This document shows, piece after piece, positions 34,689 to 62,461 of a stretch of DNA of 64,000 bases (the stretch's first letter is position 1; the number at the start of each line of letters is the position of its first letter). The stretch spans positions 6,300,001 through 6,364,000 of the forward strand of contig NZ_CP071839.1 in the NCBI RefSeq assembly GCF_017526105.1. The letters are read 5' to 3'. This DNA comes from Streptomyces cyanogenus. GTDB lineage: Bacteria > Actinomycetota > Actinomycetes > Streptomycetales > Streptomycetaceae. Position numbers and translations under genes: made by a program. Below the pieces are notes generated by a model, which had not been told where the DNA came from, did no database searches, and saw only the letters and a program-made list of their open reading frames with translations.

Positions 34689-34756
34689 CGGGGTTCTCCT
34701 ACGCGTCCTTCCGGCACGGTCCGCTCGGGGCGGCCGGTGCGGACCGGTGCGCGGGT

Positions 34757-34795
34757 GGGGTTAACCCCCGTGGCGGACGGGCGGGTTGACCCCCC
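34757..34795. promoter_or_regulatory. Paired palindromic sites upstream of the FtsX-like gene
   Basis: A perfect 12-bp palindrome, GGGGTTAACCCC (34757-34768), is followed 26 bp on by the related GGGTTGACCC (34783-34792). They lie about 120-150 bp before the FtsX-like permease start and resemble a dimer-binding operator. No regulator gene is adjacent. Confidence 0.4.
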
Positions 34796-34906
34796 TCGCA
34801 GGACACCGGGGCACCGCAGTGCTCTCCCGCCCCGCACCGGCGAGTCTGTAGGGGCGCCCAGCGCGCGACCCAGCCGACGCGTACAACAGAAGAGAGCCCC
34901 GTCCCC

Positions 34907-37435
34907 ATGATGCTGCGTTACGCCCTGCAGACAGTCCGCGCCCGCAAAGCGGGGTTTCTCGGCGCCTTCCTCGCCCTGATGTGCGCGGCGGCTCTGATCA
35001 CCGCGTGCGGCACCCTCCTCGACACCGGCCTGCGCGGCACCATCCGCACCGAGCGCTACGCCGCCGCTCCCATCGTGGTCTCCGCCGACCAGTACGTGCA
35101 CCGGACCACCGTCAAGCACAAGAAGGGCAAGACCAAGGTCAAGCACAAGGCGAAACCCATCGCCGAACGCGCCTGGCTAGCCGGGGACCTGCGCGGCACG
35201 CTCGCCCACACCCCCGGCGTGGCCCGGGTGATCCCCGAACTCACCTTCCCTGCCCAGCCGTTCACCCCGTCCGGCACCGGCGGCCGTACCGCCTACGGCC
35301 ATGCCTGGGACTCCGCCGCGCTCACCCCCTACCGGCTGACCGCCGGCCGCGCCCCCACCGCCGCGGACGACCTCGTGATCGACGGTGACCTCGCCGCGCG
35401 GGCCCGGCTGCGTCCCGGCGACCGGCTCACCGTGCAGTCCACGCAAGCCCCGCGCGGCTACCGGATCACCGGTATCGCCACCCCGGCCACCGCTGTACGC
35501 CACCAGACGCCCCTGTTCTTCTCCACCGCCGAAGCCCGCCGACTGGCCGGACACACGGGCAAGGTCACCGCGTTCGGTGTGCTGCCGGCCAAGGGGGCGG
35601 ACCCCGAGCGGGTGCGCCGGGCGGTGGAGCGAGCGCTGCACGGCACGACGGCGCAGATCAGCAGCGGCGACGCACGCGGACCCGTCGAATTCCTGGAGGC
35701 GGCCGCCGCCCGCACCCGGCTGGTCAGCATGGGCGGCGCCATGGGCGGCACCTCACTGCTGGTGGCGGTGCTGGTGGTCGTCGGCACCTTCGCGCTCACC
35801 GTCCAACAGCGCCACCGCGAACTCGCCCTGCTCCGGGCCATCGCCGCCACCTCCGGACAGATCCGCAGTCTGCTCGGCCGGGAGGCGCTGATCGTCGGTG
35901 CCGCAGCGGGCACCGCCGGCGCACTGCTCGGGTTGCCGCTGGGCGGCTGGCTGCACTCCCGGTTCGTCGCCCTCGGCGCCGTACCCGACACGCTCGAACA
36001 CACCGTCAGTGTCTTCCCGCCGCTGGTCGCTCTCGCCGCCACCCTGCTGGGCGCCTGGGCGGCGGCCCGCATCGCCTCACGCAGGGTCGCCCGGATCCGC
36101 CCGGCCGAGGCCCTGGCCGAAGCGAGGACCGAGCGCACCCGGCCCGCCTGGGGCCGCATCGCCGCCGGGCTCCTGCTGCTCGCCGGCGGAGTCGTCCTCG
36201 TCGTCGTGCTCACCTTCCTGCGCACCGAGCCCGCCTCGACCCCCGTGACCTTCCTCGCTGTCGTCGTCCTGTCCACCTCCGTCGCCCTGCTCGGTCCCCT
36301 CCTGGTCCGGGCCGCCGTGCTGCTGCTCGCCGGCCCGCTCCGGCTCACCGGTCACGGCGGCCGGCTCGCCACCGCCAACCTGCGCGGCAACGCCGCCCGC
36401 ATGGCCTCCGTCGTCACCCCCCTCACTCTGCTCGTCGGCATGACCTGCACCGTCCTGTTCGTCCAGGACACCCTCGGGAACGCCGCCCGCACCCAGGTAC
36501 ACGAAGGTGTCAGGGCCGACTGGGTGGTCGCCGCCCAGGGACCGGGCGTCCCCGGCGAGGCCGCCGAACGGCTGCGCGCACAGCACGACACCGTCACCGA
36601 GGTGGTCCGCACGACCGTCCGCGTCGGCCTCGACAAGTACCCCGCACAGGGCGTCACCCCCGCCGGCCTCACTCGCACCTGGGACCCGGAGGTCACCGCA
36701 GGCTCCCTCGACCGGCTCGGCCCCGGCACGGTCGCCGTCAGCGAAGTGGCCGCCGACCAGCAGCATCTGAGGCCGGGAAGCACCCTCGAACTCACGCTCG
36801 GCGACGGCACGCCCGCCACGCTCACCGTCGCCGCCGTCTACGCCCGGGGTCTCGGCTTCGGCGACCTCACCTTCGCCCACGACCTCGTGGCCCACCACGT
36901 CGACAACCCGCTCGCCTCCTCCGTCCTCGTCGGCACGACCCGTACACAGACACAACTCGCGACTACGCTCCGTGAGTTCCCGGGACTGCGGATTCTTTCG
37001 CCGTCCGACGCCGACGCCCTTCAGTCCGACCGGCAGCAGAAGAACGCCGAGGTCAACTACCTCGCCATGGGACTCGTCCTGGCCTTCACCGCCATTGCCG
37101 TCGTCAACACGCTGGCCATGTCGGTCGCCGAGCGTGTCCGGGAGTTCGCGCTGCTCCGCCTGGCCGGTGCGACCCGCCGTCAGGTGCTGCGCATGCTGCG
37201 CACCGAGGCGCTGGCCGTCCTGTTCCTCGCCACCTCGGTCGGCACCGGTATCGCGCTGGCCGTGCTCACCGCGTTCAGCGTCGGCATGACGGGCCGGGTC
37301 GCACCGGCGGTCACCCCGCTGCTCTACGTGGGCGTGGTCGCGGTCGCCGGCCTCCTGGCCCTCGTGGCCAGTGCCGTGCCCGGGCGCGCGGCGCTCCGGG
37401 TGCGGGCGGTGACGGTCGCCACGGCGAAGGAGTAG
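34907..37435 (+). CDS. FtsX/MacB-like ABC transporter permease
   Basis: An 842-residue membrane protein with two FtsX-type halves. Each half has an N-terminal or central membrane helix, a large extracytoplasmic domain and a three-helix FtsX bundle (about 280-410, QQRHRELALLRAIAATSGQ; and about 720-835, ERVREFALLRLAGATRRQ). Such permeases act in lipoprotein, peptide or macrolide export and envelope stress. An ATPase partner normally lies next door, but none is present here. Two ATGs (34907, 34910) are possible; the ribosome site is weak. Confidence 0.88.
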   Translation: MMLRYALQTVRARKAGFLGAFLALMCAAALITACGTLLDTGLRGTIRTERYAAAPIVVSADQYVHRTTVKHKKGKTKVKHKAKPIAERAWLAGDLRGTLAHTPGVARVIPELTFPAQPFTPSGTGGRTAYGHAWDSAALTPYRLTAGRAPTAADDLVIDGDLAARARLRPGDRLTVQSTQAPRGYRITGIATPATAVRHQTPLFFSTAEARRLAGHTGKVTAFGVLPAKGADPERVRRAVERALHGTTAQISSGDARGPVEFLEAAAARTRLVSMGGAMGGTSLLVAVLVVVGTFALTVQQRHRELALLRAIAATSGQIRSLLGREALIVGAAAGTAGALLGLPLGGWLHSRFVALGAVPDTLEHTVSVFPPLVALAATLLGAWAAARIASRRVARIRPAEALAEARTERTRPAWGRIAAGLLLLAGGVVLVVVLTFLRTEPASTPVTFLAVVVLSTSVALLGPLLVRAAVLLLAGPLRLTGHGGRLATANLRGNAARMASVVTPLTLLVGMTCTVLFVQDTLGNAARTQVHEGVRADWVVAAQGPGVPGEAAERLRAQHDTVTEVVRTTVRVGLDKYPAQGVTPAGLTRTWDPEVTAGSLDRLGPGTVAVSEVAADQQHLRPGSTLELTLGDGTPATLTVAAVYARGLGFGDLTFAHDLVAHHVDNPLASSVLVGTTRTQTQLATTLREFPGLRILSPSDADALQSDRQQKNAEVNYLAMGLVLAFTAIAVVNTLAMSVAERVREFALLRLAGATRRQVLRMLRTEALAVLFLATSVGTGIALAVLTAFSVGMTGRVAPAVTPLLYVGVVAVAGLLALVASAVPGRAALRVRAVTVATAKE

Positions 37436-37468
37436 CACCGGTACCGTCGGTGGGCGCGTCCGCGCCGC

Positions 37469-37506
37469 GGTGAACCCCGGGGCGGGTCCCGGGGTTCACC
37501 GCTTTT
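37469..37506. terminator. Terminator between convergent FtsX-like and rhodanese genes
   Basis: GGTGAACCCCGGG and CCCGGGGTTCACC form a perfect 13-bp stem with a 6-nt loop, followed by GCTTTT on the plus strand. It lies between two convergent stops. Confidence 0.85.
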
Positions 37507-37520
37507 CGCAGCCGACGGGC

Positions 37521-40488: not shown

Positions 40489-40758
40489 GAGGTGGCGCTC
40501 CCTGCTCGCGGCGATGCCTTGACGGACTGGTGTGAACACACTAGGGGAGCAGGGCGAACGATCACAGAACGTATGCAACCTATTGCCGGGGCCTCCGTCA
40601 AGCGAGGCGTGCGGGGCGGTGTGTGACCGTTCGGCGACGACGCGGGCCAGGGCCGTTGTCCGGCGCGGTCCGCGAATTCCCAGGGTACGTCATATTCCGT
40701 TTCTCTTACCGATTGTAAGGAGAGGGCCTGTCCGCCCTTCCGTTCCACATTTCGACAT

Positions 40759-40774
40759 AACGTTTGCAAACGTT
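40759..40774. promoter_or_regulatory. Perfect 16-bp palindrome, LacI-family-like operator
   Basis: AACGTTTGCAAACGTT is fully palindromic and extends as CA-N-16-N-TG on both sides. The CGTTTGCAAACG core resembles LacI/GalR-family operators. It lies 40 bp upstream of the -35 of the peptide promoter. No LacI-type gene is in the window. Confidence 0.6.
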
Positions 40775-40813
40775 GTGAGCCTGTCCGCTGAGTGTGCGCA
40801 CATTAGAAAGTCA

Positions 40814-40842
40814 TTGCCATGTCTCTAGCTGCTACATAGGAT
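40814..40842 (+). promoter_or_regulatory. Promoter of the six-Cys peptide gene
   Basis: TTGCCA (40814-40819), 17 bp, then TAGGAT (40837-40842), close to the Streptomyces housekeeping consensus TTGACN-TAGRRT. The start would be near 40849, giving a leader of about 114 nt. Confidence 0.65.
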
Positions 40843-40962
40843 CACTCGCAGTAGGTCGAAGTCGCGCGACGTTCCTACTACGGGGTGGCTCTTCCCTGCC
40901 TATTCGACCACGCGGGGCCGAGCCTTCCGGACAGACCATCCGGACACCAAAAGGAGAAGCAC

Positions 40963-41190
40963 ATGCTCCTCAAGGAAATGACGAACAAGCTGGGCGACCG
41001 ACTTCTCGGCCGCCTCGTTCCCAGCACCACCGCGGATGCCGACCAGTTCGAGTGCACCTGGGAGTACAAGTGCACCTTCCCGTACTGTGGCGGCGCATCG
41101 CGTCTCACCCGGTTCCGTCGGCAGGTGTGCGCGGAGAGCACCGGCGGTCCGAGCAAGGGCCCGTGGGAGAGGCTCGGCTGCTGCTGGTAA
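40963..41190 (+). CDS. Precursor of a secreted six-cysteine peptide (candidate RiPP/bacteriocin)
   Basis: A 75-residue peptide, not assignable to a named family by eye. Residues 1-26 form an amphipathic, non-hydrophobic leader (MLLKEMTNKLGDRLLGRLV) ending in TTADA, an Ala-x-Ala site for a type I signal peptidase. Cleavage would release 49 residues with six Cys at core positions 5, 11, 16, 30, 47 and 48, net charge about +2, and many aromatics; it ends LGCCW. An even Cys number suggests three disulfides. The spacing (C-x5-C-x4-C-x13-C-x16-CC) lacks CxxxC and CxC, so it is not a defensin-type CS-alpha-beta fold. AAGGAG lies six bases before the ATG at 40963; an earlier in-frame start has no such site. 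Redox, export and peptidase genes follow. Confidence 0.75.
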   Translation: MLLKEMTNKLGDRLLGRLVPSTTADADQFECTWEYKCTFPYCGGASRLTRFRRQVCAESTGGPSKGPWERLGCCW

Positions 41191-41217
41191 GCACGGCTGA
41201 TCACATCTGATTGACCC

Positions 41218-41259
41218 GGTCCGGTCGGCCCGGCGAGGGGAACACGGGCCGGCCGGACC
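41218..41259 (+). promoter_or_regulatory. Stem-loop between precursor and redox/export genes
   Basis: GGTCCGGTCGGCCCG (41218-41232) pairs with CGGGCCGGCCGGACC (41245-41259) over all 15 positions (one G-U) around a 12-nt loop. No T-run follows directly. It probably acts as a partial terminator or 3' stabiliser, so more precursor mRNA is made than mRNA for the downstream genes. Confidence 0.65.
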
Positions 41260-41298
41260 AGCCTGTCATGCCTTTTCTGTGAAACAGGGCCCGTTACG

Positions 41299-41838
41299 AT
41301 GACCTATCTGCACCTTTCATTGAGGCTGTCACTCGCGGGCGTTTTCCTTGTGTCCGGGCTGGCGAAAGCGCGTGCCATCGACGGTGCGGTTCTGATGTGC
41401 AAGAGCCTCTTCGGCACCTTCTGGCCGGCCCGGAAGAACTGGGCCGGGCCCGCCGCCCGCGCGCTCGTCGTCACCGAGGTGGCGACCGGCCTCGCACTCG
41501 TCGTCCCCGGCTCCGACGCCACCACCGCGCTCGGCCTGCTTGCGGCGATCGGCCTGCTCATGGGGTTCACCGCGCTGGCGGTCGTCACCTCGCGCAGACA
41601 GCTCGCGCTCGTCTGCGCCTGCTTCGGCCGTGCCGGCGCGCCACTGGGCCGGCGCCACGTCTGGCGCAACCTCGCCCTGCTCGCCATCGGCGCCTCGGCA
41701 CTGTTCCTCCTGCCCGAGGCCGGGAGCGGGACCTGGGACACCGGCGGGACCGGCGTGGCGGTGACTGCGGCGGCCGTCGTCACGCTTCTCACCTTCTATT
41801 ACGACGAGATAGCAGACCTGCTCAGCGGCAACTGGTGA
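41299..41838 (+). CDS. MauE/DoxX-like membrane redox protein
   Basis: A 179-residue protein with about four membrane helices. The MauE hallmark is present: CACFG (106-110) followed by a conserved RN pair (123-124, VWRNLALL), plus GLAK near the end of helix 1 and a third Cys at 34. MauE acts with thioredoxin-like MauD to form the many disulfides of methylamine dehydrogenase in the periplasm; here no methylamine genes are present. The neighbours, a Cys-rich peptide and a CxxC protein, point to disulfide formation in the exported peptide. This role is inferred. Confidence 0.85.
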   Translation: MTYLHLSLRLSLAGVFLVSGLAKARAIDGAVLMCKSLFGTFWPARKNWAGPAARALVVTEVATGLALVVPGSDATTALGLLAAIGLLMGFTALAVVTSRRQLALVCACFGRAGAPLGRRHVWRNLALLAIGASALFLLPEAGSGTWDTGGTGVAVTAAAVVTLLTFYYDEIADLLSGNW

Positions 41839-41878
41839 TCTGCCGCCCGCGCACGACGGAATCTGGAGTAATGCTGTA

Positions 41879-42403
41879 ATGGTATTCCTCGTCCCGGTCG
41901 TCGCCCTCATCGGCGCGTTGGCCGTGTTCAACCTGTTCCTCACTATGGCGGTGATCCGTCGGCTCAAACAGAATGCTCCCGACCTGGCCGAGCCGGATCT
42001 CCCGGAACTTCCACCCGGTAGCCGGCTCCCCGATTTCCACGGGGAATCCATTTCCGGAACACCCGTCACCGCCCACACGGTGGCGGGAACGGACTCGATC
42101 TTCGCGTTCTACGACACCGGCTGCTCGGCGTGCAAGACGACCATTCCTCAGCTCATCGGCTACGCCCAGGGCAAGGGCCTGAAGCCTGACCAGGTCATCG
42201 CGGTGGTGGGAGGCGACCGAGCGGCGGCCGACGTGTACGCCGCCGAACTGGACGGCGTGGCCACGGTGATCGTGGAGGACACGCTCGGTCCGGTCGCGTC
42301 GGCGTTCTCGATCTCCGGCATCCCGGCGTTCGTCCAGGTCGACAGCGGCGGCACCGTGGTGCGCTCGGGCACCGCGCGCGGTGTTCTGACCTCAGGGATC
42401 TGA
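41879..42403 (+). CDS. Membrane-anchored thioredoxin-like protein (MauD/TlpA-like)
   Basis: A 174-residue protein. One N-terminal membrane helix (about 3-24) anchors a thioredoxin fold facing outward. The redox site is CSAC (82-85) in FYDTGCSACK, and the cis-Pro loop is SGIPAF (Pro 149). MauD and TlpA family proteins exchange disulfides in the cell envelope. Next to MauE and a six-Cys peptide it is the likely disulfide catalyst or isomerase. GGAG lies about ten bases before the ATG; the gap to mauE is 40 bp. Confidence 0.88.
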   Translation: MVFLVPVVALIGALAVFNLFLTMAVIRRLKQNAPDLAEPDLPELPPGSRLPDFHGESISGTPVTAHTVAGTDSIFAFYDTGCSACKTTIPQLIGYAQGKGLKPDQVIAVVGGDRAAADVYAAELDGVATVIVEDTLGPVASAFSISGIPAFVQVDSGGTVVRSGTARGVLTSGI

Positions 42404-42416
42404 CGGGCGGAGGACG

Positions 42417-44297
42417 GTGTCCGCACGCATGCACAACGGTCCCGGCGAAATGGTCCGCCGTGGCCTGGAGGCACTCAGACTCACCTGGCAGGCGGGGCCG
42501 GTCACCGCTTCCCTCTACCTGTTGATCACGGTGGCGGAAGGCACCCTGCCCGCGGCTGTGGCCTTGCTGACCAAATGGCTCATCGACGGCATACAGCTGG
42601 GCGCCGCGGGCTCGGCCGACGCTCCGGACAAGCCCGCGGCGCCTGGCCTCACCCCCTTGCAGGCGGTCGTCTGGATCGGCGTGCTGAGCGCCGTCCTGGC
42701 GGCGCTTCCGCCCCTCAGGGAGTTCTGGAAGTCCCGGCTTCAGCGCGGTGTGAGCCTCTTGGTGCAGTACCGGCTGTACTCGGCGGTGAGCCGCTTGCAG
42801 GGGCTTGCCCGCTTCGAGCGCCCGGAGTTCCTCGACCGGTTGCGGATGGCGCAGCAGGCAGCCACGACCGCGCCCGAACAGGTGGTCGCCTCGTGTTTCG
42901 GGCTGCTCCAGGCCGGGTTGACGGTGTCCAGCTTCCTGGGCGTCCTCGTCTCGATCAGTCCGCTCATGGCGGTCGTCACCGTGGCGGCCGTCGTGCCCGC
43001 CCTGTTCGTCCAGCTGTCCATGAGCCGTCAGCTGTCCGACATGATGTGGGAGATGAGCCCGCGCAGCAGGCGGCAGCTCTTCTACCAGAGGATGCTGTTC
43101 GACCTCGACGCGGTGAAGGAGACGCGCCTGTTCGGGACGGGCCGGTTCCTGCTCGAGCGCATGCGCGTGGAGACCGAGGAGATCAACCGCGCGGAGGAGG
43201 CACTCGACCGCCGGACCGTCGTACGCCATGGACCGCTCTCCGTGCTGGGTGCCCTGGTCGCGGCGGGTGGCCTCGTCTGGATCGTCGTCGAGGCGACCGA
43301 GGGCCGACTCAGCATCGGCGACGTCGCCGCGTTCATCGCTGCGGTGGCCGGTGTGCAGGGCTCGCTCGGTGGCGCAGTGGCCGATGCGACGAGCGCGTAC
43401 CAGGCCCTGCTGCTGTTCGGTCACTACCGCGACGTCATCCGCGCGGAACCCGACCTGCCGGAGCCCGCCCGGCCGCGCGGCCTGGCCCGGCTGCGGCACG
43501 GCATCCACCTGGAGGACGTCTGGTTCCGCTACACGGACGAAGGCCCGTGGGTGCTGCGGGGGGTCACACTGACCATCCCGTTCGGTGGTTCCCTCGCTCT
43601 GGTGGGACTGAACGGAGCCGGCAAGAGCACCCTGGTGAAACTGCTCTGCCGCATGTACGACCCGACGAAGGGCCGCATCCTCTGGGATGGCGTCGACATC
43701 CGGGAGGTGGCCGTCGCGGACCTTCGGGAGCGCATCACCGCGGTGTTCCAGGACTTCACCGCCTACGACCTGACCGTGCAGGAGAACATCGGCATCGGTG
43801 ACGTCCGTGTCCTGGACGACCTGGGGAAGGTGCGTGCCGCCGCCGAGCAGGCCGGCATCCACCCCGTGGTGGAGAAACTCCCCCGGGGCTACCGGTCCAT
43901 GCTGTCCAGGATCTTCTACCAGGAGGGCGAGTCCGGGGAGTCGGAGCACGGCGTGACCCTGTCCGGCGGACAGTGGCAGCGCATCGCGCTCGCTCGTGCC
44001 TTCGTCCGCACCGGAAGGGATCTGCTCATCCTCGACGAGCCCAGCTCCGGCCTGGACCCGGCGGCGGAGCGGGAGGTGCACGACTCGTTGCGGGACTACC
44101 GCTCCGACGCCACCAGCGTGCTCATCTCCCACCGGCTGGGGGCGGTCCGGCAGGCCGACCGCATAGTCGTCCTGCGGCACGGACGGGTGGTCGAGGAGGG
44201 AACCCACGGCCAGCTGCTGCGGAAGGACGGGGAATACGCGCGGCTGTATTCACTCCAGGCGTCGAGTTATGTGGACGCCGTCGGCAGTTCCGAATGA
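42417..44297 (+). CDS. ABC exporter (fused membrane and ATPase domains)
   Basis: A 626-residue half-size exporter: six-helix membrane domain (about 20-335), then ATPase domain with Walker A GLNGAGKST (near 396), signature LSGGQ, Walker B LLILDEP (near 536) and an H-loop in LISHRL. Homodimers of this type export peptides and lipids. There is no N-terminal C39 peptidase domain, so leader removal must be done by another enzyme, presumably the signal peptidase encoded next. Start is uncertain: GTG 42417 or ATG 42429 behind GGAGGA. It follows the MauD-like gene by 13 bp. Confidence 0.93.
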   Translation: MSARMHNGPGEMVRRGLEALRLTWQAGPVTASLYLLITVAEGTLPAAVALLTKWLIDGIQLGAAGSADAPDKPAAPGLTPLQAVVWIGVLSAVLAALPPLREFWKSRLQRGVSLLVQYRLYSAVSRLQGLARFERPEFLDRLRMAQQAATTAPEQVVASCFGLLQAGLTVSSFLGVLVSISPLMAVVTVAAVVPALFVQLSMSRQLSDMMWEMSPRSRRQLFYQRMLFDLDAVKETRLFGTGRFLLERMRVETEEINRAEEALDRRTVVRHGPLSVLGALVAAGGLVWIVVEATEGRLSIGDVAAFIAAVAGVQGSLGGAVADATSAYQALLLFGHYRDVIRAEPDLPEPARPRGLARLRHGIHLEDVWFRYTDEGPWVLRGVTLTIPFGGSLALVGLNGAGKSTLVKLLCRMYDPTKGRILWDGVDIREVAVADLRERITAVFQDFTAYDLTVQENIGIGDVRVLDDLGKVRAAAEQAGIHPVVEKLPRGYRSMLSRIFYQEGESGESEHGVTLSGGQWQRIALARAFVRTGRDLLILDEPSSGLDPAAEREVHDSLRDYRSDATSVLISHRLGAVRQADRIVVLRHGRVVEEGTHGQLLRKDGEYARLYSLQASSYVDAVGSSE

Positions 44298-44357
44298 CAG
44301 GAGACGTCGGCTCTCCGGCCTCTTCCGTTCATCCTCTTTTTCGACGAGTTTCTGGCG

Positions 44358-44825
44358 GTGGTGCGGGTGCTGTGGCTGATGACGCTTGCTGTCCTGGGTG
44401 TATTCGCAGTCGCGATGGCCATCTTCTGGGCCCGGCGAAACCTCGTGGCGGTGACGGTGAACGGCCTCAGCATGAGCCCGACGTTCACCACGGGTGACCG
44501 GGTGCTCGTCCGACGGGGCACGGGAGGGCTGCGCAGAGACCGCATCGTGGTGGTGGCCCGGCCGGACCGCAGGAACGGCTGGGGCACGACACCGCTGATC
44601 AGCCGCGACGTGGATTCGAGCCGTTGGTACATCAAGCGAGCGGTCGCCCTGGGGGGCGACCGCTATCCATCTCAGGCACCTGCCGACGGTGTGGTACCGG
44701 CCGGCCACCTCATGGTGATCGGCGACAACCCGGTGAGCGTGGACTCGAAGCAGCACGGTCCGTGCCCCGCTCACCAGGTGCTGGGCGTCGTCGTCCGCAG
44801 GCTTCCGCGGCGCCTTCAGGGATGA
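44358..44825 (+). CDS. Type I signal peptidase (S26 family), cassette-specific
   Basis: A 155-residue serine peptidase with one N-terminal membrane helix (about 4-24). Catalytic Ser 38 lies in GLSMSPT and Lys 93 in YIKRAVALGGD; box E is GDNPVSVDSKQHGP. It is shorter than housekeeping Streptomyces signal peptidases (usually 230 or more). As the last gene of the cassette it probably cuts the precursor after Ala-Asp-Ala. Start is GTG 44358 or 44361, with no good ribosome site. It is convergent with the glu operon. Confidence 0.88.
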   Translation: MVRVLWLMTLAVLGVFAVAMAIFWARRNLVAVTVNGLSMSPTFTTGDRVLVRRGTGGLRRDRIVVVARPDRRNGWGTTPLISRDVDSSRWYIKRAVALGGDRYPSQAPADGVVPAGHLMVIGDNPVSVDSKQHGPCPAHQVLGVVVRRLPRRLQG

Positions 44826-44848
44826 TGACGTCCTGGTCGGCGGCCCCG

Positions 44849-45787
44849 TCAGGCCTGGGTCTCACGGTCGGTCGTGGGACCCAGCGGCCCCTTTGAAGCG
44901 TCGAGCACTCCCGGTGCTTCGGCGGGCTCGGCCGCTGCCGCGACAGCGACACCGGTCTTCGCACGGCGCCCTCGTCGTTCGATCCAGGTCGCGAGCGAGG
45001 ACAGGGCGAGGCACATCGCGATGTAGATCGCGCCGACGACGATGGTGACCGCCGTGAACGGGTTGTCCCCGTTGACGATGATGTTGTTGGCCATCGTCCG
45101 GGTGGCGAACAGAAGCTCCGTGTAGGTGATGACGTAACCGAGCGAGGTGTCCTTCAGCGTGACCACCAGCTGGCTGATCATCGTCGGCAGCATGGAGCGG
45201 ATCGCCTGCGGCAGCAGGAGCATCGTCATCACTTGGTACTTGCGCATGCCGAGCGCGTAGGCGGCCTCCACCTGTCCCTTCGGCACGGCGTTGATGCCCG
45301 CGCGGAACACCTCGGCCTGGACCGAGCCGTTGTAGACGGTGAGCCCGATGACGAGACCCCAGAACGCGGTGTAGTCACCGATCACGCCGAGGTCGGTCTT
45401 GTAGGTGAGGAACAGCACCCACAGGGCGTAGATCGTGATGAGCAGCGGGACGGCACGGAACAGCTCGATGAAGCCGGTCGCCAGCCAGCGGACCGGCCGG
45501 TGCTCCGACAGCCGCGCGACGGCGAGCAGCAGCCCGAGGACCAGGGACAGCGCCCCCGCCACGGCGAACACCTTCAGGGTGGTCAGCACGCCGTCGCGGA
45601 TGTTCGTGCGCACGCCGGCGTTGTTGAAGATGTCCCAGACCTTCGGATCCAACTGACCCTTGGCGTCGAGACGGTACACGGCGAAGGCGAGCAGGGCGAT
45701 CAGTGCCAGTGAGCCGAGCACCGAGTAGATGCGGTTGCGCACGCGGGCCTTCGGGCCCGGAGCGTCGTACAGAACGCTTGCAGTCAT
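44849..45787 (-). CDS. gluD: Glutamate ABC transporter permease GluD
   Basis: A 312-residue polar amino acid permease of the His/Glu/Gln type, with about five membrane helices and the EAA loop EAAYALGMRKYQVMTMLLLPQ. The C-terminal 40 residues are Ala/Glu-rich and cytosolic. It is the last gene of the operon; its start overlaps the gluC stop by four bases. The ATG at 45787 begins MTASVLYDAPG. Confidence 0.92.
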   Translation of the reverse strand: MTASVLYDAPGPKARVRNRIYSVLGSLALIALLAFAVYRLDAKGQLDPKVWDIFNNAGVRTNIRDGVLTTLKVFAVAGALSLVLGLLLAVARLSEHRPVRWLATGFIELFRAVPLLITIYALWVLFLTYKTDLGVIGDYTAFWGLVIGLTVYNGSVQAEVFRAGINAVPKGQVEAAYALGMRKYQVMTMLLLPQAIRSMLPTMISQLVVTLKDTSLGYVITYTELLFATRTMANNIIVNGDNPFTAVTIVVGAIYIAMCLALSSLATWIERRGRRAKTGVAVAAAAEPAEAPGVLDASKGPLGPTTDRETQA

Positions 45788-51982: not shown

Positions 51983-52112
51983 GCGGGCGATCCTGCCAGG
52001 CGACGCGCGCCCCTGACCAGGGCCGGGGTCACTCCCGGGGAGCGGCGAAGCGGACGCTGGGGGTCCGCCCGGGGCGACGGGCGCTGTCGGTGGCGGCCGT
52101 TAGAGTCGCCGT

Positions 52113-52520
52113 ATGAGCTCTTCGCCCGCCCGCCTCGTCCGTGAGTTCCACCGCGCCTTCGGCCTCGACGCCCGCACCACGCCGACCGAGGTGGACCCGC
52201 GGTTGGCCGCCCACCGGGGCGAACTGCTCGCCGAGGAGGCCGCGGAGGTCGCCGAGGTCGCGGTGGAGGGGCCGCTGGACCGGCTCGCGCACGAGCTGGC
52301 CGACGTGGTGTACGTCGCCTACGGCACGGCCCTGGTGCACGGCATCGACCTCGACGAGGTGATCGCCGAGATCCACCGCGCCAACATGAGCAAGCTCGGC
52401 CCGGACGGGACGGTGGCCCGCCGGGCCGACGGCAAGGTGCTCAAGGGGGAGCACTACCGGGCGCCGGACGTCTCGGCCGTACTGCGCCGCCAGGGCTGGA
52501 TACCGGGCGGGGCGGCCTGA
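52113..52520 (+). CDS. MazG-like nucleotide pyrophosphohydrolase
   Basis: A 135-residue all-alpha NTP pyrophosphohydrolase. The metal-binding EExxE/ExxD pattern is seen in ELLAEEAAEVAEVA and HELADVVYVAYG. Small MazG-like enzymes remove non-canonical nucleotides or lower (p)ppGpp. The substrate is not predictable. Confidence 0.82.
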   Translation: MSSSPARLVREFHRAFGLDARTTPTEVDPRLAAHRGELLAEEAAEVAEVAVEGPLDRLAHELADVVYVAYGTALVHGIDLDEVIAEIHRANMSKLGPDGTVARRADGKVLKGEHYRAPDVSAVLRRQGWIPGGAA

Positions 52521-52535
52521 CGCCTCGGCGCGGGC

Positions 52536-53990
52536 CTACGAGGACAGGGAGCCGCCCGCCAGCTTCCACTCGCGGTGCAGCGCACCCAGCGGGATGCTCC
52601 GCTGGATGACGGGGGTGCCGAAGACGGACAGCTGGAGCCGCAGGGTGCCGGACAGGTCCACGCCGCCGTAGACACCCCAGGTACCCGTCGCCTTCGGTGT
52701 ACTGCCGTCGGAGGCGGCGGTGAGCGTGCCGGTGGCCTCGCCGCGCAGGTACGGGGCCAGGTCGGCGGTGACGCCCACGGTGCCGTAGAGGCCGACCGTG
52801 GCCTCGGCACCGAGCGCCGTCTTCACGCTGCCGGCGGTGGCGACGGAGGCGCGCACGGGGGTGCTGGTCATGTGCGAGGCGCTCACCGGCGTCCACCCGT
52901 GGCTCAGGCCGAAGGTGCCGCCCGCCTTGAAGTCGCCCTTCAGGCTCTGCTCGACGTCGACCGTGGCCCGGCCCTCGGCGCTGATCTGGAGGTAGCAGGT
53001 CAGATCGAGGTTGACGACGACGGGCACCGGGCCGACCTGCAGGACGGGGTCGGCGTGCAGCTTGGCGAACGGGATGCGCAGCGGGGTGCCGGTGGCCGCC
53101 GCGGCCCGGCCCTTGACCGCCCAGCCGGAGGTCCAGTCGCCGGACACGCCGAGGTACGCCGAGCCGGGCGGGGCGTCGCTGCCGGTGCCGCCGTAGGCGA
53201 AGTCGACCTGCGGGGCGACCTGGACGAAGCCGTGCACGGAGGCGGTGGCCGACGCGCCGGAGCCCCCGGTGGTGGGCACCTCGGCGCCGACGTCCAGCCG
53301 GAGGCTGCCGAGCGGCACCGTCGCGCCCTTGGGGCCGGCGTGCACGTCACCGGTTTTCGACCAGGACACCTTCACGTCGGGCAGCAGCTTGTCGACGGTG
53401 AAGGACGACGGGTCGACCGGCACGTCACCCTTCGCCGTCGCGTCGCCGAGCAGCGCGTTGAGCGTGGCCGGTTCGGTCTGCACCTCGGTGCCGCCGTCCG
53501 TCTCGCCGATCACCTTGGTGACCTTGGCGAGCAGTCCGCGCGGGGCACCGGGCGCGGGCGCACTGGCGATCACGTCGCCCACGGCGGTCCGGTGCGGTGC
53601 GGCGGAGGAACCGGTGGACGGTGCGGACGGCGCGGTCGGTGTGGACGGCGCGGTCGGTGTGGGCGAGTGCGGTGAACTCCCGTTGGAGTGCTCGGAGATG
53701 ACGGCCCGCCGGGTGCGGCCGTCGTACGAGCTGACGGTGAGCGTCGTCCTGTGTGCGCGCTGCCCGGAGCCGCCGCGCGGGCTCGCCACGGCGGTCGCGG
53801 TGGCGGTGGGAGCGGCGGCGACGGTGAGCGAGTGGTCCGTGCCCTCGGCGGCGGGCTGGGTGGCCCGGATCTGCTGTTCCTGTCCGGCGGCCGCCCGCTG
53901 GGCGGCCTGCGGTGCGGGCGAGGAACAGGCCGCGGCCAGGAACAGCGAGGTCACGGCGAAGGCGGGCAGCAGGGCACGCCTGTGCCTCAT
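52536..53990 (-). CDS. Secreted lipoprotein of unknown function
   Basis: A 484-residue exported protein. The signal peptide ends in LAAAC (Cys 22), a lipobox. A Thr/Pro/Ser-rich spacer (about 95-125, PTAPSTPTAPSAPSTG) leads to a beta-rich domain without a recognised family. Repeating Gly-containing strands (GTWGVYGGVDLSGTLRLQL) suggest a beta-structured surface protein. ATG 53990 is used; a TTG at 53990+12 has a better-spaced AGGA and is a real alternative. Confidence 0.7.
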   Translation of the reverse strand: MRHRRALLPAFAVTSLFLAAACSSPAPQAAQRAAAGQEQQIRATQPAAEGTDHSLTVAAAPTATATAVASPRGGSGQRAHRTTLTVSSYDGRTRRAVISEHSNGSSPHSPTPTAPSTPTAPSAPSTGSSAAPHRTAVGDVIASAPAPGAPRGLLAKVTKVIGETDGGTEVQTEPATLNALLGDATAKGDVPVDPSSFTVDKLLPDVKVSWSKTGDVHAGPKGATVPLGSLRLDVGAEVPTTGGSGASATASVHGFVQVAPQVDFAYGGTGSDAPPGSAYLGVSGDWTSGWAVKGRAAAATGTPLRIPFAKLHADPVLQVGPVPVVVNLDLTCYLQISAEGRATVDVEQSLKGDFKAGGTFGLSHGWTPVSASHMTSTPVRASVATAGSVKTALGAEATVGLYGTVGVTADLAPYLRGEATGTLTAASDGSTPKATGTWGVYGGVDLSGTLRLQLSVFGTPVIQRSIPLGALHREWKLAGGSLSS

Positions 53991-54191
53991 GCGTCTGCGC
54001 AAGGTGGGTCCTGTGGGATGGGGGGTGGCTGGGAGGTACCGGCCTCGGTGCTACTGGTGAGTAGAACCGGTCGGTAGCTCGGAGACGAGCATGAGCATGC
54101 CACGGCATGCGCACAGGCCGCACACAATCCGGCCACCCCCCAACGTGAGCTGTGCCACGGGGAGTTGCCGTGGTGGCCGACGCGCCAGGGG

Positions 54192-54635
54192 TCAGCGTCC
54201 GGACAGCCCCGTACCGCCGAGGCGCGTCAGCAGCGCCGCGAGACCGGCGACGTCCGTCGCCGGCCAGGCCGGGCCGGCGAAGATCTCGGCGGCGGTCTCC
54301 TCCGCCGTGGCCAGCATCTCCGTCAGCCGCCGCCGGCCCGTCGCGGTCAGCGCCGCGTACGCCACGCGCGCGTCCCGGGCGTCCGGCTCCCGGGTCACCA
54401 GTCCGATCCGCTCCAGCGGCGCCAGCCCGCGGGTGACCCCGGAGGCGGTCAGCCCCAGCGCCTCGGCGAGGTCGACCCGGCGCATCCGGCCGCCGGGCGC
54501 CTGCCCGAGCCGGAGCAGCAGGGTGAAGTCGGCGAGGCTGACGCCGTGCAGCCCGCTCAGCCGGGCGTCGAAGCGCCGTACGAGCGCCGTCTGGGCCCGT
54601 ACCAGCCGCAGCGCCGTGTCCAGGGCGTCACTCAC
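54192..54635 (-). CDS. MarR-family transcriptional regulator
   Basis: A 147-residue winged-helix regulator. LSGLHGVSLADFTLLLRL and MRRVDLAEALGLTASGVTRGLAPLERIGLVTRE form the DNA-binding region, with the wing at EPDARDARVAYAALT. A palindromic site lies just upstream, which fits autorepression. The DUF6204-like gene upstream in the same direction may be in the same unit. Confidence 0.9.
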   Translation of the reverse strand: MSDALDTALRLVRAQTALVRRFDARLSGLHGVSLADFTLLLRLGQAPGGRMRRVDLAEALGLTASGVTRGLAPLERIGLVTREPDARDARVAYAALTATGRRRLTEMLATAEETAAEIFAGPAWPATDVAGLAALLTRLGGTGLSGR

Positions 54636-54657
54636 TCGCCTCGCCTCCTCCCCATCC

Positions 54658-54682
54658 CTTGAGTTGTCCTTGACTACTCAAG
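54658..54682. promoter_or_regulatory. Likely MarR operator
   Basis: CTTGA-CTAC-TCAAG (54669-54682) is a palindrome with a 4-bp centre, and a second CTTGAG half-site lies at 54658-54663. The site is about 30 bp upstream of the MarR start, in keeping with autoregulation. Confidence 0.55.
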
Positions 54683-54696
54683 TTTATGCGCGGGTT

Positions 54697-55056
54697 TCAT
54701 GCGCCGGCGCCGCGGGCGGCGCGGCGCTGTCGCTTGCCCAGGGGTGCCTGGGAAAGGTCCTCGGCGGTGGTCCGAAGGTGCTTGAAGCTGTAGCCGCGCT
54801 CGGTCAGCCAGGCCTTCGCCGCCCCCTCGGCCCGCTCCGTCGCCTCCAGGATGTCCTCCTCCTTCTCTCCCGTCGCGGAGAAGCGGAAGACGAAGGCGGG
54901 CCGGGCGGCGATGTCGTAGGTCAGGGTCCCCTCGGGAGTGAAGGCCGCGCGCAGCACGTCGTGTTCGGCGGCGTCGGCCAGCAGGGCGGCGCGCTGGGCG
55001 TCGGTGAGGGCGTCGAAGGCGCCGCGGACGGTGATACGGAAGGTTCGTGTACTCAT
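54697..55056 (-). CDS. DUF6204-like protein
   Basis: A 119-residue protein resembling the streptomycete DUF6204 family. It begins MSTRTFRITVRGAFDALTD and has a beta-alpha pattern with FTPEGTLTYDIAARPAFVFRF. The C-terminus is Arg/Lys-rich. No catalytic motif is visible and function is unknown. Confidence 0.7.
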   Translation of the reverse strand: MSTRTFRITVRGAFDALTDAQRAALLADAAEHDVLRAAFTPEGTLTYDIAARPAFVFRFSATGEKEEDILEATERAEGAAKAWLTERGYSFKHLRTTAEDLSQAPLGKRQRRAARGAGA

Positions 55057-55176
55057 TCCGTGACCCTAGGCACAGCGGGGTTTCGTCCTCCACCGGGTTT
55101 CCGGGGCTGCAGGGAGCGGGGGCGCGGATCGCCGAGGCGGAGTGGCCGTGCACGGCGGCTGTGAGAGGTTGAAGCC

Positions 55177-55752
55177 ATGACGACGTACATCGCGCTGCTG
55201 CGCGGGATCAATGTCGGCGGCAGCGCCAGGATCGCCATGAAGGACCTGCGTACGCTGTTCGCCGGCATGGGGTTCGAGGACGTCCGGACGTATCTGCAGA
55301 GCGGGAACGTCGTGTTCCGCGCCCCCGCCCCGGACACCGCCGGCCCCGCCGCCCCGGGCACGCGGCGCCCCGCCGGCCTCGCCGCGGGCATCGAGAAGCG
55401 GATCGCCGACGACCTCGGCGTCTCCTGCACGGTCCTGCTGCGCACCGGCGACTCGCTGGCCCGCACCCTCGCCGCGAACCCGTACACCGGCCGGGACGAC
55501 GACCCGGCCAAGCTGCACGTCACCTTCCTCGCCCGGGAGCCGACCGCCGAGGAGGCCGCCCGCCTGGAGCTGCCGGCCGGGGAGACGGCCGTGTTCACGC
55601 TGGTCGGCGACGAGATCCATCTGCACGTCCCCGACGGGTACGGCAGGACCAGACTGAACAACGCCTTCATCGAGCGCCGCCTCGGCATGCGGGCCACCAC
55701 CCGCAACTGGAAGACGGTCACCGCGCTGCACGAACTGGCCGCCGGGGACTGA
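55177..55752 (+). CDS. DUF1697 family protein
   Basis: A 191-residue protein of the DUF1697 family: YIALLRGINVGGSARIAMKDL at the start, TYLQSGNVVF, and TRLNNAFIERRLGMRATTRNW at the end are all characteristic. Function is unknown. An Ala/Pro-rich loop (about 52-70) is longer than usual. Confidence 0.9.
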   Translation: MTTYIALLRGINVGGSARIAMKDLRTLFAGMGFEDVRTYLQSGNVVFRAPAPDTAGPAAPGTRRPAGLAAGIEKRIADDLGVSCTVLLRTGDSLARTLAANPYTGRDDDPAKLHVTFLAREPTAEEAARLELPAGETAVFTLVGDEIHLHVPDGYGRTRLNNAFIERRLGMRATTRNWKTVTALHELAAGD

Positions 55753-55770
55753 GCCGGAACCCGGCGGGGG

Positions 55771-57036
55771 TCAGCGTTTGGCGGCGGGCGGCCGGGCGTC
55801 GCGGGCCGGCCGGACGAGGTGGTGGTCGGCGAGGGGACGCGGCTGGAGCACCGACAGGAGCGGTCCGGCCATCGCCGTGGTCACGACGGCCATGGCGACC
55901 ATCAGGGAGTACAACCGCTCGTTGAGGACGCCGAGTTGCAGACCGGCGGTCAGGATGATCAGCTCGGTCAGGCCCCTGGTGTTCATGAGGGTGGCCAGAA
56001 CCGCCGACTGGCGTGCCGTGACACCGTGCGCCCGGGCGCTCAGGAACGCGCCGAGGAACTTGCCACTGACGGCGACCAGCAGAATGAGGGCGAAGTCCAG
56101 CCATCCGGACCGCCCCAGATCCGACAGGTCGACTTTCAGGCCCACGCTGATGAAGAAAACCGGCAGCAGCAGGTGACTGCTGACATGCCCGACCCGGTCG
56201 GTGATGTCGGCACGCAGCTGCTCGGTGGATTCCTTGGGCATCACCACACCGAAGAAGAACGCGCCGAAAATGAAGTGCAGGCCCATCTTCTCGGTGACCG
56301 CGCCCGACACGAGCAGACCGGCGAGCACGGCCGTCAGCGCCGCGGGACTCAGCCGGGAGGTGCCGTCACCCGCGGCGAGCAGCCTGCGCAGCAGCGGGCG
56401 CACGACCCAGAGCATCACGCCGGTGTACGGCAGGAGCAGCACCAGATACCACTGGTGGCTGCCGCCCCCGCCGGCCAGCGCGACCACGGCGGCGAGCATG
56501 CACCAGGCGAGCACGTCCCCGATCGCGGCGCAGGCCAGTGCCAGGCCGCCGACCGGGGTGTGCTGCATCTTCCGGTCCGTGAGAATGCGGGCCAGCACCG
56601 GAAAGGCGGTCACCGACATCGCCGTGCCCATGAAGAGCACGAAACCGAGTCGGTGATCCGGGGCATTGTCCTCGGCCAGCAGCAGGGCGAGCAGAGCGCC
56701 GAGTGCGAACGGCAGGAGAATGGAGGACAGCGACACGGTGGCCGCCAGTCGTCCGGTGCCGCGCAGGATTTTCCGGTCCAGCTCCAGGCCCACGATGAAC
56801 ATGAATACGGCCATTCCGACGTCGGCGAGTGCGGTGAGCATCGGCCGGATATCGGTCGGGAAGAGGAATTCGGACACCCTGTGCCCCAGTAAGGTCGGGC
56901 CGAGCATGATGCCCGCCAGTACTTCGCCGATGACCGCGGGTTGGGAGAATCTGCGTGCCACGGCACCCAGGAGCTGCGCGAGGACGAGTATGAGGGCCAG
57001 GTCGGAAAAGAGCGCGAACAATTGGTTCGTGGCCAC
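55771..57036 (-). CDS. CPA2-type cation/proton antiporter
   Basis: A 421-residue membrane protein with 12 or so hydrophobic helices (Na+/H+ exchanger domain). Family segments are PAVIGEVLAGIMLGPTLLG, AVFMFIVGLELD and LMNTRGLTELIIL. The GTG at 57036 with AGGGA just upstream gives a normal N-terminus; longer starts add unrelated sequence. The ion is not predictable. Confidence 0.9.
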   Translation of the reverse strand: MATNQLFALFSDLALILVLAQLLGAVARRFSQPAVIGEVLAGIMLGPTLLGHRVSEFLFPTDIRPMLTALADVGMAVFMFIVGLELDRKILRGTGRLAATVSLSSILLPFALGALLALLLAEDNAPDHRLGFVLFMGTAMSVTAFPVLARILTDRKMQHTPVGGLALACAAIGDVLAWCMLAAVVALAGGGGSHQWYLVLLLPYTGVMLWVVRPLLRRLLAAGDGTSRLSPAALTAVLAGLLVSGAVTEKMGLHFIFGAFFFGVVMPKESTEQLRADITDRVGHVSSHLLLPVFFISVGLKVDLSDLGRSGWLDFALILLVAVSGKFLGAFLSARAHGVTARQSAVLATLMNTRGLTELIILTAGLQLGVLNERLYSLMVAMAVVTTAMAGPLLSVLQPRPLADHHLVRPARDARPPAAKR

Positions 57037-57545
57037 CGGTCCCTGCCTTTTTGTCGTTTTGCGGGCGTTGCCCGGAATTCCATGAGGTGCCGCCGACGTG
57101 CCTTCGCCATGCTTCGTTGTACAGATGGTCCTTGTCAACGGCGACCTTGCGGACGCAGGAATCTCATAAGGGGCCGGAAATGCTCTTGACATGGAATGTG
57201 TCGGCGGAGTCGGATACCGGGCGCATATGGTGATCGCGGAAGAACGCCGGTGACCGTCCGGCGCGCGTCACCGCCCTGACCGCCACCGCCCGTACCTTTC
57301 CGGCCGCCGTCGGCGGGGGCCGCCGGGTCCGCGGCGCTCCCGGGTCCGCGGGGGAACCGGCACCGGAGGCGGACGGCGGGAGTGGCCCGGAAGCCGCCGT
57401 TCCAGGACGGCCGCGCCGACCGGCCCGGTTGGCCGGTGCGGACGCTGGCCGGAAGTCGTCTGCAGTGGATCAACGGGCTCTAAGCTCGGAGGCGTCTGGC
57501 GACCCAGGCGAAGTCGGTGATCTCGGTGAAGGGGCCTGAACTGCG
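57037..57545. other. Intergenic region between antiporter and SDR genes
   Basis: A 509-bp divergent region without a credible gene. The half near the antiporter (57037-57240) has lower GC and several TTGACA-like hexamers on both strands (for example TTGACA at 57186), but no matching -10 at the right distance. The rest is GC-rich coding-like sequence with stops. Confidence 0.4.
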
Positions 57546-58382
57546 GTGGAGGACAAGCGCGTTGTCGTCGTGACCGGTGGCGGCTCGGGTATCGGGCAGG
57601 CCACGGCCCGGCTGCTGGGCGAGGAGGGTCACCACGTGGTCGTCTCCGGCCGGCGTGCCGAGCCCCTGGAACGCCTCGCGCAGGAGACGGGAGCGCTGGC
57701 GCACCCCTCCGACGTCGGGGACCCCGACGCGGCCGAGGGGCTCGTCCAGGCCGCCCTGGCCGCCTACGGACGGCTCGACGGACTGGTGCTGAACGCGGGC
57801 ATCGGACGCGGCGGAGCCGTCGGCGACATGTCCCTGCGGGACTGGGACGAGGTGATGCGCACCAACCTGACCGGTCCGCTGCTCCTGCTCCGCGCCGCCA
57901 TCCCGCACCTGTTGGAGTCCCAGGGCGCCGTGGTCGCCGTCGCCTCGGTGTCCGCGCTGCGCAACGGCACGAGCAACGCCCCCTACGCCACCTCCAAGGC
58001 GGCCCTGCTCCAGCTGTGCCGCTCCGTCGCCGTCGACTACGGGCGGCAGGGCGTGCGCGCGAACATCGTGTGTCCCGGCTGGGTGCGCACCGAGATGGCC
58101 GACCGGCGCATGGCCCGCTTCGCCGAGGAGGCGCAGCTGCCCGGCGGCGGGATGGAAGCCGCCTACGAGGAGGCCACCCGCCTGCTGCCCCAGGGACGCC
58201 CCGGTGAGCCGCGCGAGATCGCCGAGGCCATCAGCTGGCTGCTGTCCCCGGCGGCGTCGTACGTCAACGGGGCCGTGCTCACCGTCGACGGCGGGGCCAC
58301 CGCCCTCGATCCCGGGACCCTGGCCTTCGACTACCACATCGCGCCCCGCGGCGACGAGAACGGCTCCGTCGCTCCCCGCTGA
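57546..58382 (+). CDS. SDR family NAD(P)-dependent oxidoreductase
   Basis: A 278-residue short-chain dehydrogenase. Cofactor motif TGGGSGIG, NAGIGRGG, catalytic Ser in ASVSA, and YATSK with Tyr and Lys. INGAVLTVDGG-like ending VNGAVLTVDGG is typical. The C-terminus has a 25-residue extension. Substrate unknown. The start is a GTG. Confidence 0.88.
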   Translation: MEDKRVVVVTGGGSGIGQATARLLGEEGHHVVVSGRRAEPLERLAQETGALAHPSDVGDPDAAEGLVQAALAAYGRLDGLVLNAGIGRGGAVGDMSLRDWDEVMRTNLTGPLLLLRAAIPHLLESQGAVVAVASVSALRNGTSNAPYATSKAALLQLCRSVAVDYGRQGVRANIVCPGWVRTEMADRRMARFAEEAQLPGGGMEAAYEEATRLLPQGRPGEPREIAEAISWLLSPAASYVNGAVLTVDGGATALDPGTLAFDYHIAPRGDENGSVAPR

Positions 58383-58421
58383 CCGGGCCTCGGCAGCGGC
58401 CGGGCCGGCGCTGACCGGGCG

Positions 58422-60126: not shown

Positions 60127-60272
60127 TTCCCGCTCCAGCGGACAAGCCGTGGGTCACACCTAAGCAGGTCGCCCGCCCCCTTGCCCACGCCTGCCCGGGC
60201 TTTCGGTCGCCCTTTGGCGAAAAAACCTCCTCCTGCGGACGGGCCGGTGAACCGGTGACGGACGTCCGGGGA

Positions 60273-61139: not shown

Positions 61140-61246
61140 TACATCCTCCAAGTCGGTGGGTACGCCTCCCAGTTGTGTCAGCCGCCGGGGTGTCCTGTCC
61201 AAGACAGAAGATCACTTACTCGATAGAGACGATTTATGATCGCTGG
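61140..61246. promoter_or_regulatory. Divergent SDR-LysR control region
   Basis: A 107-bp gap, AT-richer than its surroundings, with CGATAGAGACGATTTATGATCG (two CGAT/ATCG half-sites) just before the LysR start. This layout is typical of LysR autoregulation and control of a divergent target. Confidence 0.5.
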
Positions 61247-62176: not shown

Positions 62177-62461
62177 CCACGCAGGCCGACGCTCACCGGT
62201 TGCGTGTGCTCTCGGGGCAGCCGGGCGGCCGGGCGGATGGACACCGGGGCGCCCGGGCGGCCGGGCAGACGGGCGCCGCGGCCGGCGGTTCGCACACGCA
62301 CGGAGCGCGACGGCATCGGGTGGCCGTGGCCCCGCCGCGGAGACCGCCGTCTGCGGACGGAGGACGGCTCGCCGAGTCGCCGCGGCCGGTGAGGCGCCGG
62401 GAGGCGTCCGCCGCACGGAAACCGGGGACAGGGTCTTCCGCGGAGCGCCTACCCTTGAGGA

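What the first reader, a model, noticed from the sequence alone, without database searches (positions are those of the whole stretch)
40963..44825. Self-contained cassette for a disulfide-bonded, signal-peptidase-processed peptide
Five genes in one direction encode a 75-residue precursor with six Cys, a MauE-like membrane redox protein, a membrane-anchored CSAC thioredoxin-like protein, an ABC exporter without C39 peptidase, and a short S26 signal peptidase. Known: MauE and MauD make disulfides in methylamine dehydrogenase; S26 enzymes cut at Ala-x-Ala. Inferred: the ABC protein exports the peptide, the MauE/MauD pair forms three disulfides, and the peptidase removes the leader. No LanB/C/M, YcaO, radical SAM, lasso or C39 gene is present, so it fits no named RiPP class I know. 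The ABC/peptidase/redox set suggests a bacteriocin or signal peptide.
Basis: partly seen in the sequence, partly recalled or inferred. Interest (0 to 1): 0.92.

Follow-up and report, generated by a model that had tools for sequence, protein, structure and literature searches.

The report
Widespread actinobacterial disulfide-peptide export cassette
Streptomyces and relatives carry a compact, swappable five-gene kit that apparently makes, exports, oxidises and trims small cysteine-rich peptides; the peptides vary enormously but always carry an even number of cysteines, as expected if every cysteine is paired in a disulfide bridge.

Summary
Window 40963-44825 encodes a 75-aa six-Cys precursor, MauE (CxCFG), a membrane-anchored CSAC thioredoxin-like protein, an ABC exporter without C39, and a short S26 peptidase. 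The five genes alone fill a clean ~4.3 kb insertion absent from three congeners.
The family is large. Among 101 actinobacterial loci, 75 have all four partners, in shuffled orders; 72 of these have a precursor found by its leader alone. The leader (~24 aa) is invariant at Pro -7 and ends in Ala-x-Ala; the cores are hypervariable. All 90 distinct intact cores have 4, 6, 8 or 10 Cys, never odd (58 clusters at 50% identity), strong evidence that the cysteines end up paired. Loci with the MauE/MauD/ABC module but no S26 have precursors without Ala-x-Ala, which ties S26 to that site.
Best explanation: a RiPP-like pathway in which ABC exports, MauD/MauE oxidise and S26 removes the leader. Export direction, oxidation and bioactivity are inferred, not shown. 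decRiPPter (PMC7794033) listed three mauE-bearing, >=8-Cys Streptomyces candidate families in 2020 without characterising them. Added here: the leader, the S26 link, Cys parity, island boundary and breadth.

The parts
40606..44938 (.). accessory island (whole unit); relatives have only ~180-230 bp here between the FAD monooxygenase gene and the amino-acid ABC permease gene
   Evidence: blastn collinearity with L197, L198, L199; GC 0.679 vs 0.713 for the window
40963..41190 (+). precursor peptide gene, 75 aa, six Cys
   Evidence: leader profile score 36 bits
40963..41040 (+). leader, residues 1-26, amphipathic, ...LGDRLLGRLVPSTTADA, ends Ala-x-Ala
   Evidence: Pro -7 in 78/78, Ala -3 in 73/78, Ala -1 in 77/78 precursors
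41041..41187 (+). predicted 49-residue core DQFEC...LGCCW, six Cys
   Evidence: sequence; even Cys number in all 90 distinct intact cores of the family
41218..41259 (+). 15-bp hairpin between precursor and mauE, candidate attenuator or processing stem
   Evidence: dG -48.3 for the 111-nt gap, z -2.4; function inferred
41299..41838 (+). MauE/DoxX-fold membrane protein with CACFG (Cys106, Cys108)
   Evidence: PF07291 E 1.2e-17; CxCFG in 74/75 loci; AF2 model pLDDT 90
41879..42403 (+). membrane-anchored thioredoxin-like (MauD/ResA-like) protein, CSAC
   Evidence: CxxC in 75/75 loci
42417..44297 (+). ABC exporter, fused TM and ATPase, no C39 peptidase
   Evidence: 44-56% identity to counterparts at other loci
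44358..44825 (+). short S26 signal peptidase (Ser38, Lys93, GDN motif)
   Evidence: PF10502 E 3.4e-18, TIGR02227 57 bits vs cut-off 47; SMxP in 75/75 loci

Best explanation
The cassette is a minimal biosynthesis-and-export pathway for a disulfide-stapled secreted peptide. The precursor is made with a short amphipathic leader that is not a Sec signal. The ABC protein recognises that leader and exports the chain. On the outer face, the CxxC thioredoxin-like protein oxidises the cysteines in pairs and hands the electrons to the CxC pair of MauE, which re-oxidises it. The S26 peptidase cuts after Ala-x-Ala and releases a 49-residue, three-disulfide peptide. Shown by sequence: gene set, conserved leader, even Cys number, conserved catalytic motifs, S26/Ala-x-Ala co-occurrence, island boundary. 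Inferred: direction of export, oxidation rather than reduction, order of steps, and the role of the product (most likely an antibiotic-like or competition peptide).
For: 75 of 101 loci hold all four partners in many different orders. 72 of those have a leader-profile precursor, against one weak hit in 222 kb of control DNA. The profile saw only leaders, yet all 90 distinct intact cores have 4, 6, 8 or 10 Cys (58 clusters at 50% identity, 2^-58 = 3.5e-18; 37 clusters at 40%, 7e-12); other residues show no such parity. CxCFG 74/75, CxxC 75/75, SMxP 75/75. S26-less loci with this ABC have precursors without Ala-x-Ala (Fisher 2e-9 to 3e-8). The leader is less hydrophobic than a secretion signal from the same window (best 8-mer 1.1 vs 2.3) but amphipathic (moment 0.51 vs 0.31 shuffled). 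Seven six-Cys precursors lie around one cassette in Rhizohabitans.
Against: No product, expression or activity has been observed. The family is counted mostly by profiles seeded from its own members. Some loci scatter the genes. No immunity gene is in the island. The S26-less cases are few (seven loci, perhaps two evolutionary events). MauE and the MauD-like protein could in principle work as reductants.
Confidence: 0.74

Rival explanations
1. The redox pair keeps the cysteines reduced or supplies reductant, and the product is a secreted metal-binding (metallophore or metallothionein-like) peptide.
For: The thioredoxin-like protein is closest to ResA-type proteins among solved structures; the cores are 16% Cys.
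Against: Metal sites do not demand even Cys counts, yet all 90 distinct intact cores are even; His is rare (1.6%) and no metal transport or regulator gene is in the island.
Confidence: 0.1
2. The cysteines end in thioether or other enzyme-made cross-links from an enzyme encoded elsewhere.
For: The same MauE/MauD/ABC module is found with graspetide maturases at three loci, so it can serve other peptide chemistries.
Against: No modifying enzyme is in the island or recurs at the loci. Cys-to-Ser/Thr or Cys-to-alpha-carbon bridges would not force Cys parity.
Confidence: 0.07
3. The peptide leaves by Sec and is cut by a housekeeping signal peptidase; the ABC protein imports, senses or gives immunity, and the S26 gene serves something else.
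For: Ala-x-Ala after a Pro is also the ordinary signal peptidase I site (general knowledge).
Against: The leader has no hydrophobic core; S26 is tied to Ala-x-Ala across loci.
Confidence: 0.12
4. The pathway is as proposed, but the mature peptide is a signal or developmental morphogen rather than an antibacterial.
For: No immunity gene in the island; AraC and HTH genes lie near the S. clavuligerus locus.
Against: Hypervariable cores, tandem paralogues, plasmid and island location, and nearby SARP-type regulators look more like competition peptides.
Confidence: 0.3

Closest known systems
decRiPPter mauE/mauD candidate RiPP families (2020, PMC7794033)
   Same: Streptomyces clusters with mauE (one also mauD), a transporter, a peptidase and Cys-rich precursors; probably overlapping with this family
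   Different: That paper reported precursors with at least 8 Cys; the window has 6. It described no leader, no S26/Ala-x-Ala link, no Cys parity and no wider distribution for them, and made no product. Identity of the families could not be checked because the strains and the supplement were out of reach
Disulfide class II bacteriocins with thiol-disulfide accessory proteins (pediocin PedC/PedD type)
   Same: ABC export plus a dedicated thiol-disulfide oxidoreductase acting on a small Cys peptide
   Different: Double-glycine leader and C39-ABC there (general knowledge); Ala-x-Ala leader, separate S26 peptidase and MauE here
Actifensins and other bacterial defensins (PMC6989792, PMC11561630)
   Same: Actinobacterial six-Cys, three-disulfide secreted peptides
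   Different: Different operon (several ABC genes, subtilisin-like protease, LuxR regulator), leader ending G-x-E, and Cys spacing not matched by the window core
TMcin (PMC13252029)
   Same: RiPP whose reported maturation is leader removal, a disulfide and export
   Different: Transmembrane helix in the product, DUF3267 site-2-type protease; studied in Staphylococcus
Graspetide loci with MauE/MauD/ABC (Micromonospora L168, L169; L133)
   Same: Same MauE/MauD/ABC module and exporter family
   Different: ATP-grasp maturase and its target peptide, no S26, no Ala-x-Ala leader

Membership tests
RiPP (ribosomal, leader plus core, modified, trimmed) | Genetically encoded precursor with conserved leader and variable core | tested here: met
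   Leader 39% vs core 24% mean pairwise identity; invariant Pro -7, Ala-x-Ala
RiPP (ribosomal, leader plus core, modified, trimmed) | Post-translational modification of the core | not testable with these tools
   Cys parity predicts disulfides; needs mass spectrometry
RiPP (ribosomal, leader plus core, modified, trimmed) | Proteolytic leader removal | tested here: inconclusive
   S26 gene and Ala-x-Ala co-occur; cleavage itself not shown
decRiPPter mauE candidate families | mauE (and in one family mauD), transporter and peptidase in the cluster | tested here: met
decRiPPter mauE candidate families | precursor with at least 8 Cys | tested here: not met
   Window has 6; 27 of 90 distinct intact cores in the family have 8 or 10
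decRiPPter mauE candidate families | regulator in the cluster (strict filter) | tested here: not met
   None in the island; BTAD regulator near 37 of 80 loci
C39-ABC class II bacteriocin | Double-glycine leader and C39 domain on the ABC protein | tested here: not met
   Leader ends Ala-x-Ala; no C39 domain in the Pfam scan
Actifensin-type defensin | C-X5-12-C-X3-C-X9-10-C-X4-5-C-X-C | tested here: not met
   Window spacing is C-X5-C-X4-C-X13-C-X16-CC (motif from PMC6989792)
Lanthipeptide, thiopeptide/LAP, lasso, sactipeptide, graspetide | Class-defining enzyme in the cluster | tested here: not met
   The island genes carry only MauE, redoxin, ABC and S26 domains; enzymes elsewhere in the genome not tested
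Signal peptidase I (S26) | Ser-Lys dyad boxes | tested here: met
   SMSP 38, KR 93, GDN 122; TIGR02227 above cut-off
MauE | PF07291 match with conserved Cys-x-Cys | tested here: met
   E 1.2e-17, above gathering score; CxC invariant in the alignment
MauE | DoxX-like helical-bundle fold | tested here: inconclusive
   Model best matches TMEM35A/NACHO, Z 12.3, rmsd 2.3 over 122 residues, next row 6.7; below the level that settles a helical bundle
mau methylamine dehydrogenase locus | mauA/mauB structural genes | not tested
   None among the island genes; the rest of the genome was not searched

The most novel reading that the evidence does not exclude
A large, uncharacterised class of actinobacterial secreted peptides defined by a shared Pro/Ala-x-Ala leader and a portable MauE-MauD-ABC-S26 kit. 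The kit tolerates almost any core as long as its cysteines pair: a natural display system for disulfide-rich scaffolds with 2 to 5 bridges, in which a dedicated signal-peptidase-like enzyme replaces the C39 domain.
Probability: 0.55. Interest if true: 0.88.

Novelty: new variant of a known kind. Interest (0 to 1): 0.78.

Why it matters
About 15% of Streptomyces genomes (60 of 393) and many genomes of one other actinomycete family carry this kind of MauE; at most examined loci in the upper score range it sits in the cassette, whose precursors no curated family library names. If the mechanism holds, it gives dozens of new disulfide-rich scaffolds, a two-protein oxidation module for actinobacteria, and a leader rule that lets genome miners find such peptides without a known modifying enzyme. 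The tests are simple, because the whole pathway is 4.3 kb.

Tried and rejected
Searching the genome collection with the single MauE protein found nothing, and the wide MauE alignment had no searchable stretch; a closer subset worked. ABC-profile searches of whole genomes failed twice on the server, so MauE was used as the anchor. One early precursor hit, L006/L010, is a spurious match inside another coding region, without the partners. Structure prediction of the precursor alone was poor (pLDDT 50), so no disulfide topology is proposed. Foldseek gave no significant PDB match for the MauE model; the structural aligner's best row is the DoxX-like protein TMEM35A. No sign of an anti-phage defence role: only the ABC ATPase matched, to generic ATPase models. 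Literature searches for S26, MauE and RiPP combinations gave only decRiPPter as directly relevant.
Full report
What is there. The window lies at 6.30-6.36 Mb of an 8.77 Mb single-contig genome; named carriers of close cassettes are mostly Streptomyces. Five + strand genes run from 40963 to 44825: a 75-aa precursor, MauE, a membrane-anchored thioredoxin-like protein, an ABC exporter and a short S26 peptidase. Pfam and NCBIfam confirm the last four and find nothing for the precursor; the ABC protein has no C39 domain. A 15-bp GC-rich hairpin lies between precursor and mauE, a usual place for an attenuator in peptide operons (inference).

The unit is a clean insertion. In three congeneric genomes, homology is collinear with the window up to 40605 (end of a FAD monooxygenase gene) and resumes at 44920-44952 (an amino-acid ABC permease gene), with about 180-230 bp between. 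In this genome 4.3 kb sits there, and it holds exactly the five genes. No regulator, immunity gene or modifying enzyme came with it.

It is a family. The precursor alone found three congeneric genomes with the same cassette, plus one spurious hit. A profile of those precursors, run over 393 congeneric genomes, gave hits down to E ~1e-3; nearly all of those fetched sit beside MauE, MauD-like, ABC and S26 genes, although the profile knew nothing of neighbours. A MauE profile over 395 genomes of the class extended this to other families, with up to eight MauE matches per genome. Of 101 unique loci examined, 75 hold all four partners and 72 of these a leader-profile precursor. Two of the other three have variant Ala-x-Ala precursors seen by eye, and the third is cut by the contig start. 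Gene order varies widely, with precursor-mauE-mauD-abc-s26 commonest, 23 of 64; the set, not the order, is conserved. Named carriers include Streptomyces clavuligerus pSCL4 (two precursors), S. atratus and S. nigrescens plasmids, S. roseoverticillatus, S. eurocidicus, S. netropsis, S. hainanensis, Nocardia sp. CDC159, Virgisporangium ochraceum and Rhizohabitans arisaemae, which has seven precursors. Sixty of 393 congeneric genomes have a MauE of this type at E <= 1e-22; synteny was not checked for every one.

Leader and core. Aligned on the leader, Pro is at -7 in 78 of 78 precursors, Ala at -1 in 77 and Ala at -3 in 73. The leader is amphipathic and lacks the hydrophobic core of a Sec signal. 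Cores are 28-75 residues, rich in Cys, Gly, Tyr and Trp, and far more variable than the leader. The leader profile gave one weak hit in 222 kb of control DNA and none in shuffled proteins.

Even cysteines. The 90 distinct intact cores have 4 (3), 6 (60), 8 (20) or 10 (7) Cys; none is odd. The only odd case (7) is at a degenerate locus, L055, with a run-on frame and no MauE. Grouped at 50% identity there are 58 clusters (2^-58 = 3.5e-18), at 40% 37 clusters (7e-12). Relatedness makes these numbers approximate, but other residues in the same cores are even about half the time. Metal binding, lanthionines or free thiols would not force parity; pairing into disulfides would.

S26 goes with Ala-x-Ala. 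Seven loci have MauE, a MauD-like protein and this ABC family but no S26 nearby. Four (genus g37; L143, L144, L170, L171) carry an 8-Cys peptide (SVFAP....RDCPPDC... or a close variant) whose leader lacks Ala-x-Ala. Three (L133, L168, L169) carry an ATP-grasp graspetide maturase and its likely target peptide. Against 74 of 75 S26-bearing loci with Ala-x-Ala precursors this is p ~2e-9; a stricter table gives 3e-8. The seven may be only two evolutionary events. The graspetide loci also show that MauE/MauD/ABC is a portable module. L120 has the module, a BTAD gene and an unclear six-Cys ORF, and was left out of the argument.

Catalytic residues. MauE CxCFG in 74 of 75, CxxC in 75 of 75, S26 SMxP in 75 of 75 complete loci. 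The MauE model (pLDDT 90) resembles the DoxX-like protein TMEM35A (Z 12.3 over 122 residues, next row 6.7); for helical bundles that is suggestive, not proof.

How it probably works. The leader addresses the precursor to the ABC exporter. Outside, the CxxC protein oxidises Cys pairs and MauE recycles it, by analogy with the need for MauE and MauD in methylamine dehydrogenase maturation (as cited in PMC7794033). S26 cuts after Ala26 and frees a 49-mer with three disulfides. The sequence shows the parts, their linkage and the parity; direction, order and redox sense are inferred.

What it does is open. Hypervariable cores, tandem paralogues, plasmid and island location and a BTAD (SARP-type) regulator near 37 of 80 loci (background rate not measured) favour an antibiotic-like role. 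The missing immunity gene leaves room for signalling.

What is known. decRiPPter named three mauE-bearing candidate RiPP families in Streptomyces, one with mauD, with precursors of at least 8 Cys, and did no further work on them in that paper. They probably overlap this family, whose members reach 8 and 10 Cys; that could not be checked. Class II bacteriocins with C39 exporters, actifensins and TMcins differ in leader, protease and gene set. So the kind had been glimpsed; I found no description of the pathway.

Noticed in passing
L133, L168, L169: Graspetide clusters (TIGR04187-type ATP-grasp maturase plus likely target peptide) carry the same MauE/MauD/ABC module without S26: the module is shared between peptide classes.
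   Followed up: partly
L143 7246-7431, L144 6478-6666, L170 7480-7665, L171 7533-7718: Variant in one genus: 8-Cys peptide with no Ala-x-Ala and no S26, beside an FtsX-type permease and an ABC ATPase gene (possible immunity or second exporter).
   Followed up: partly
37 of 80 loci, e.g. L126 10531-12468, L090 551-3361: A BTAD (SARP-type) regulator gene, often with NB-ARC or TPR parts, lies within about 7 kb of the cassette at nearly half of the loci, but not in the window island. Background rate not measured.
   Followed up: partly
L165 973-6686: Rhizohabitans arisaemae has seven precursor genes around one cassette, all with six Cys in different cores.
   Followed up: partly
window 34692-37519: Another stretch absent from the relative L197, holding an FtsX-like permease gene (34907-37435).
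   Followed up: no
window 52033-62445: About 10 kb absent from relatives L197 and L199, with a Na+/H+ exchanger, a DUF6545 protein and a short-chain dehydrogenase.
   Followed up: partly
G137:C1 4347469 and 4360111: One congeneric genome has two inverted copies of the precursor and mauE about 12 kb apart, suggesting a duplicated cassette.
   Followed up: no
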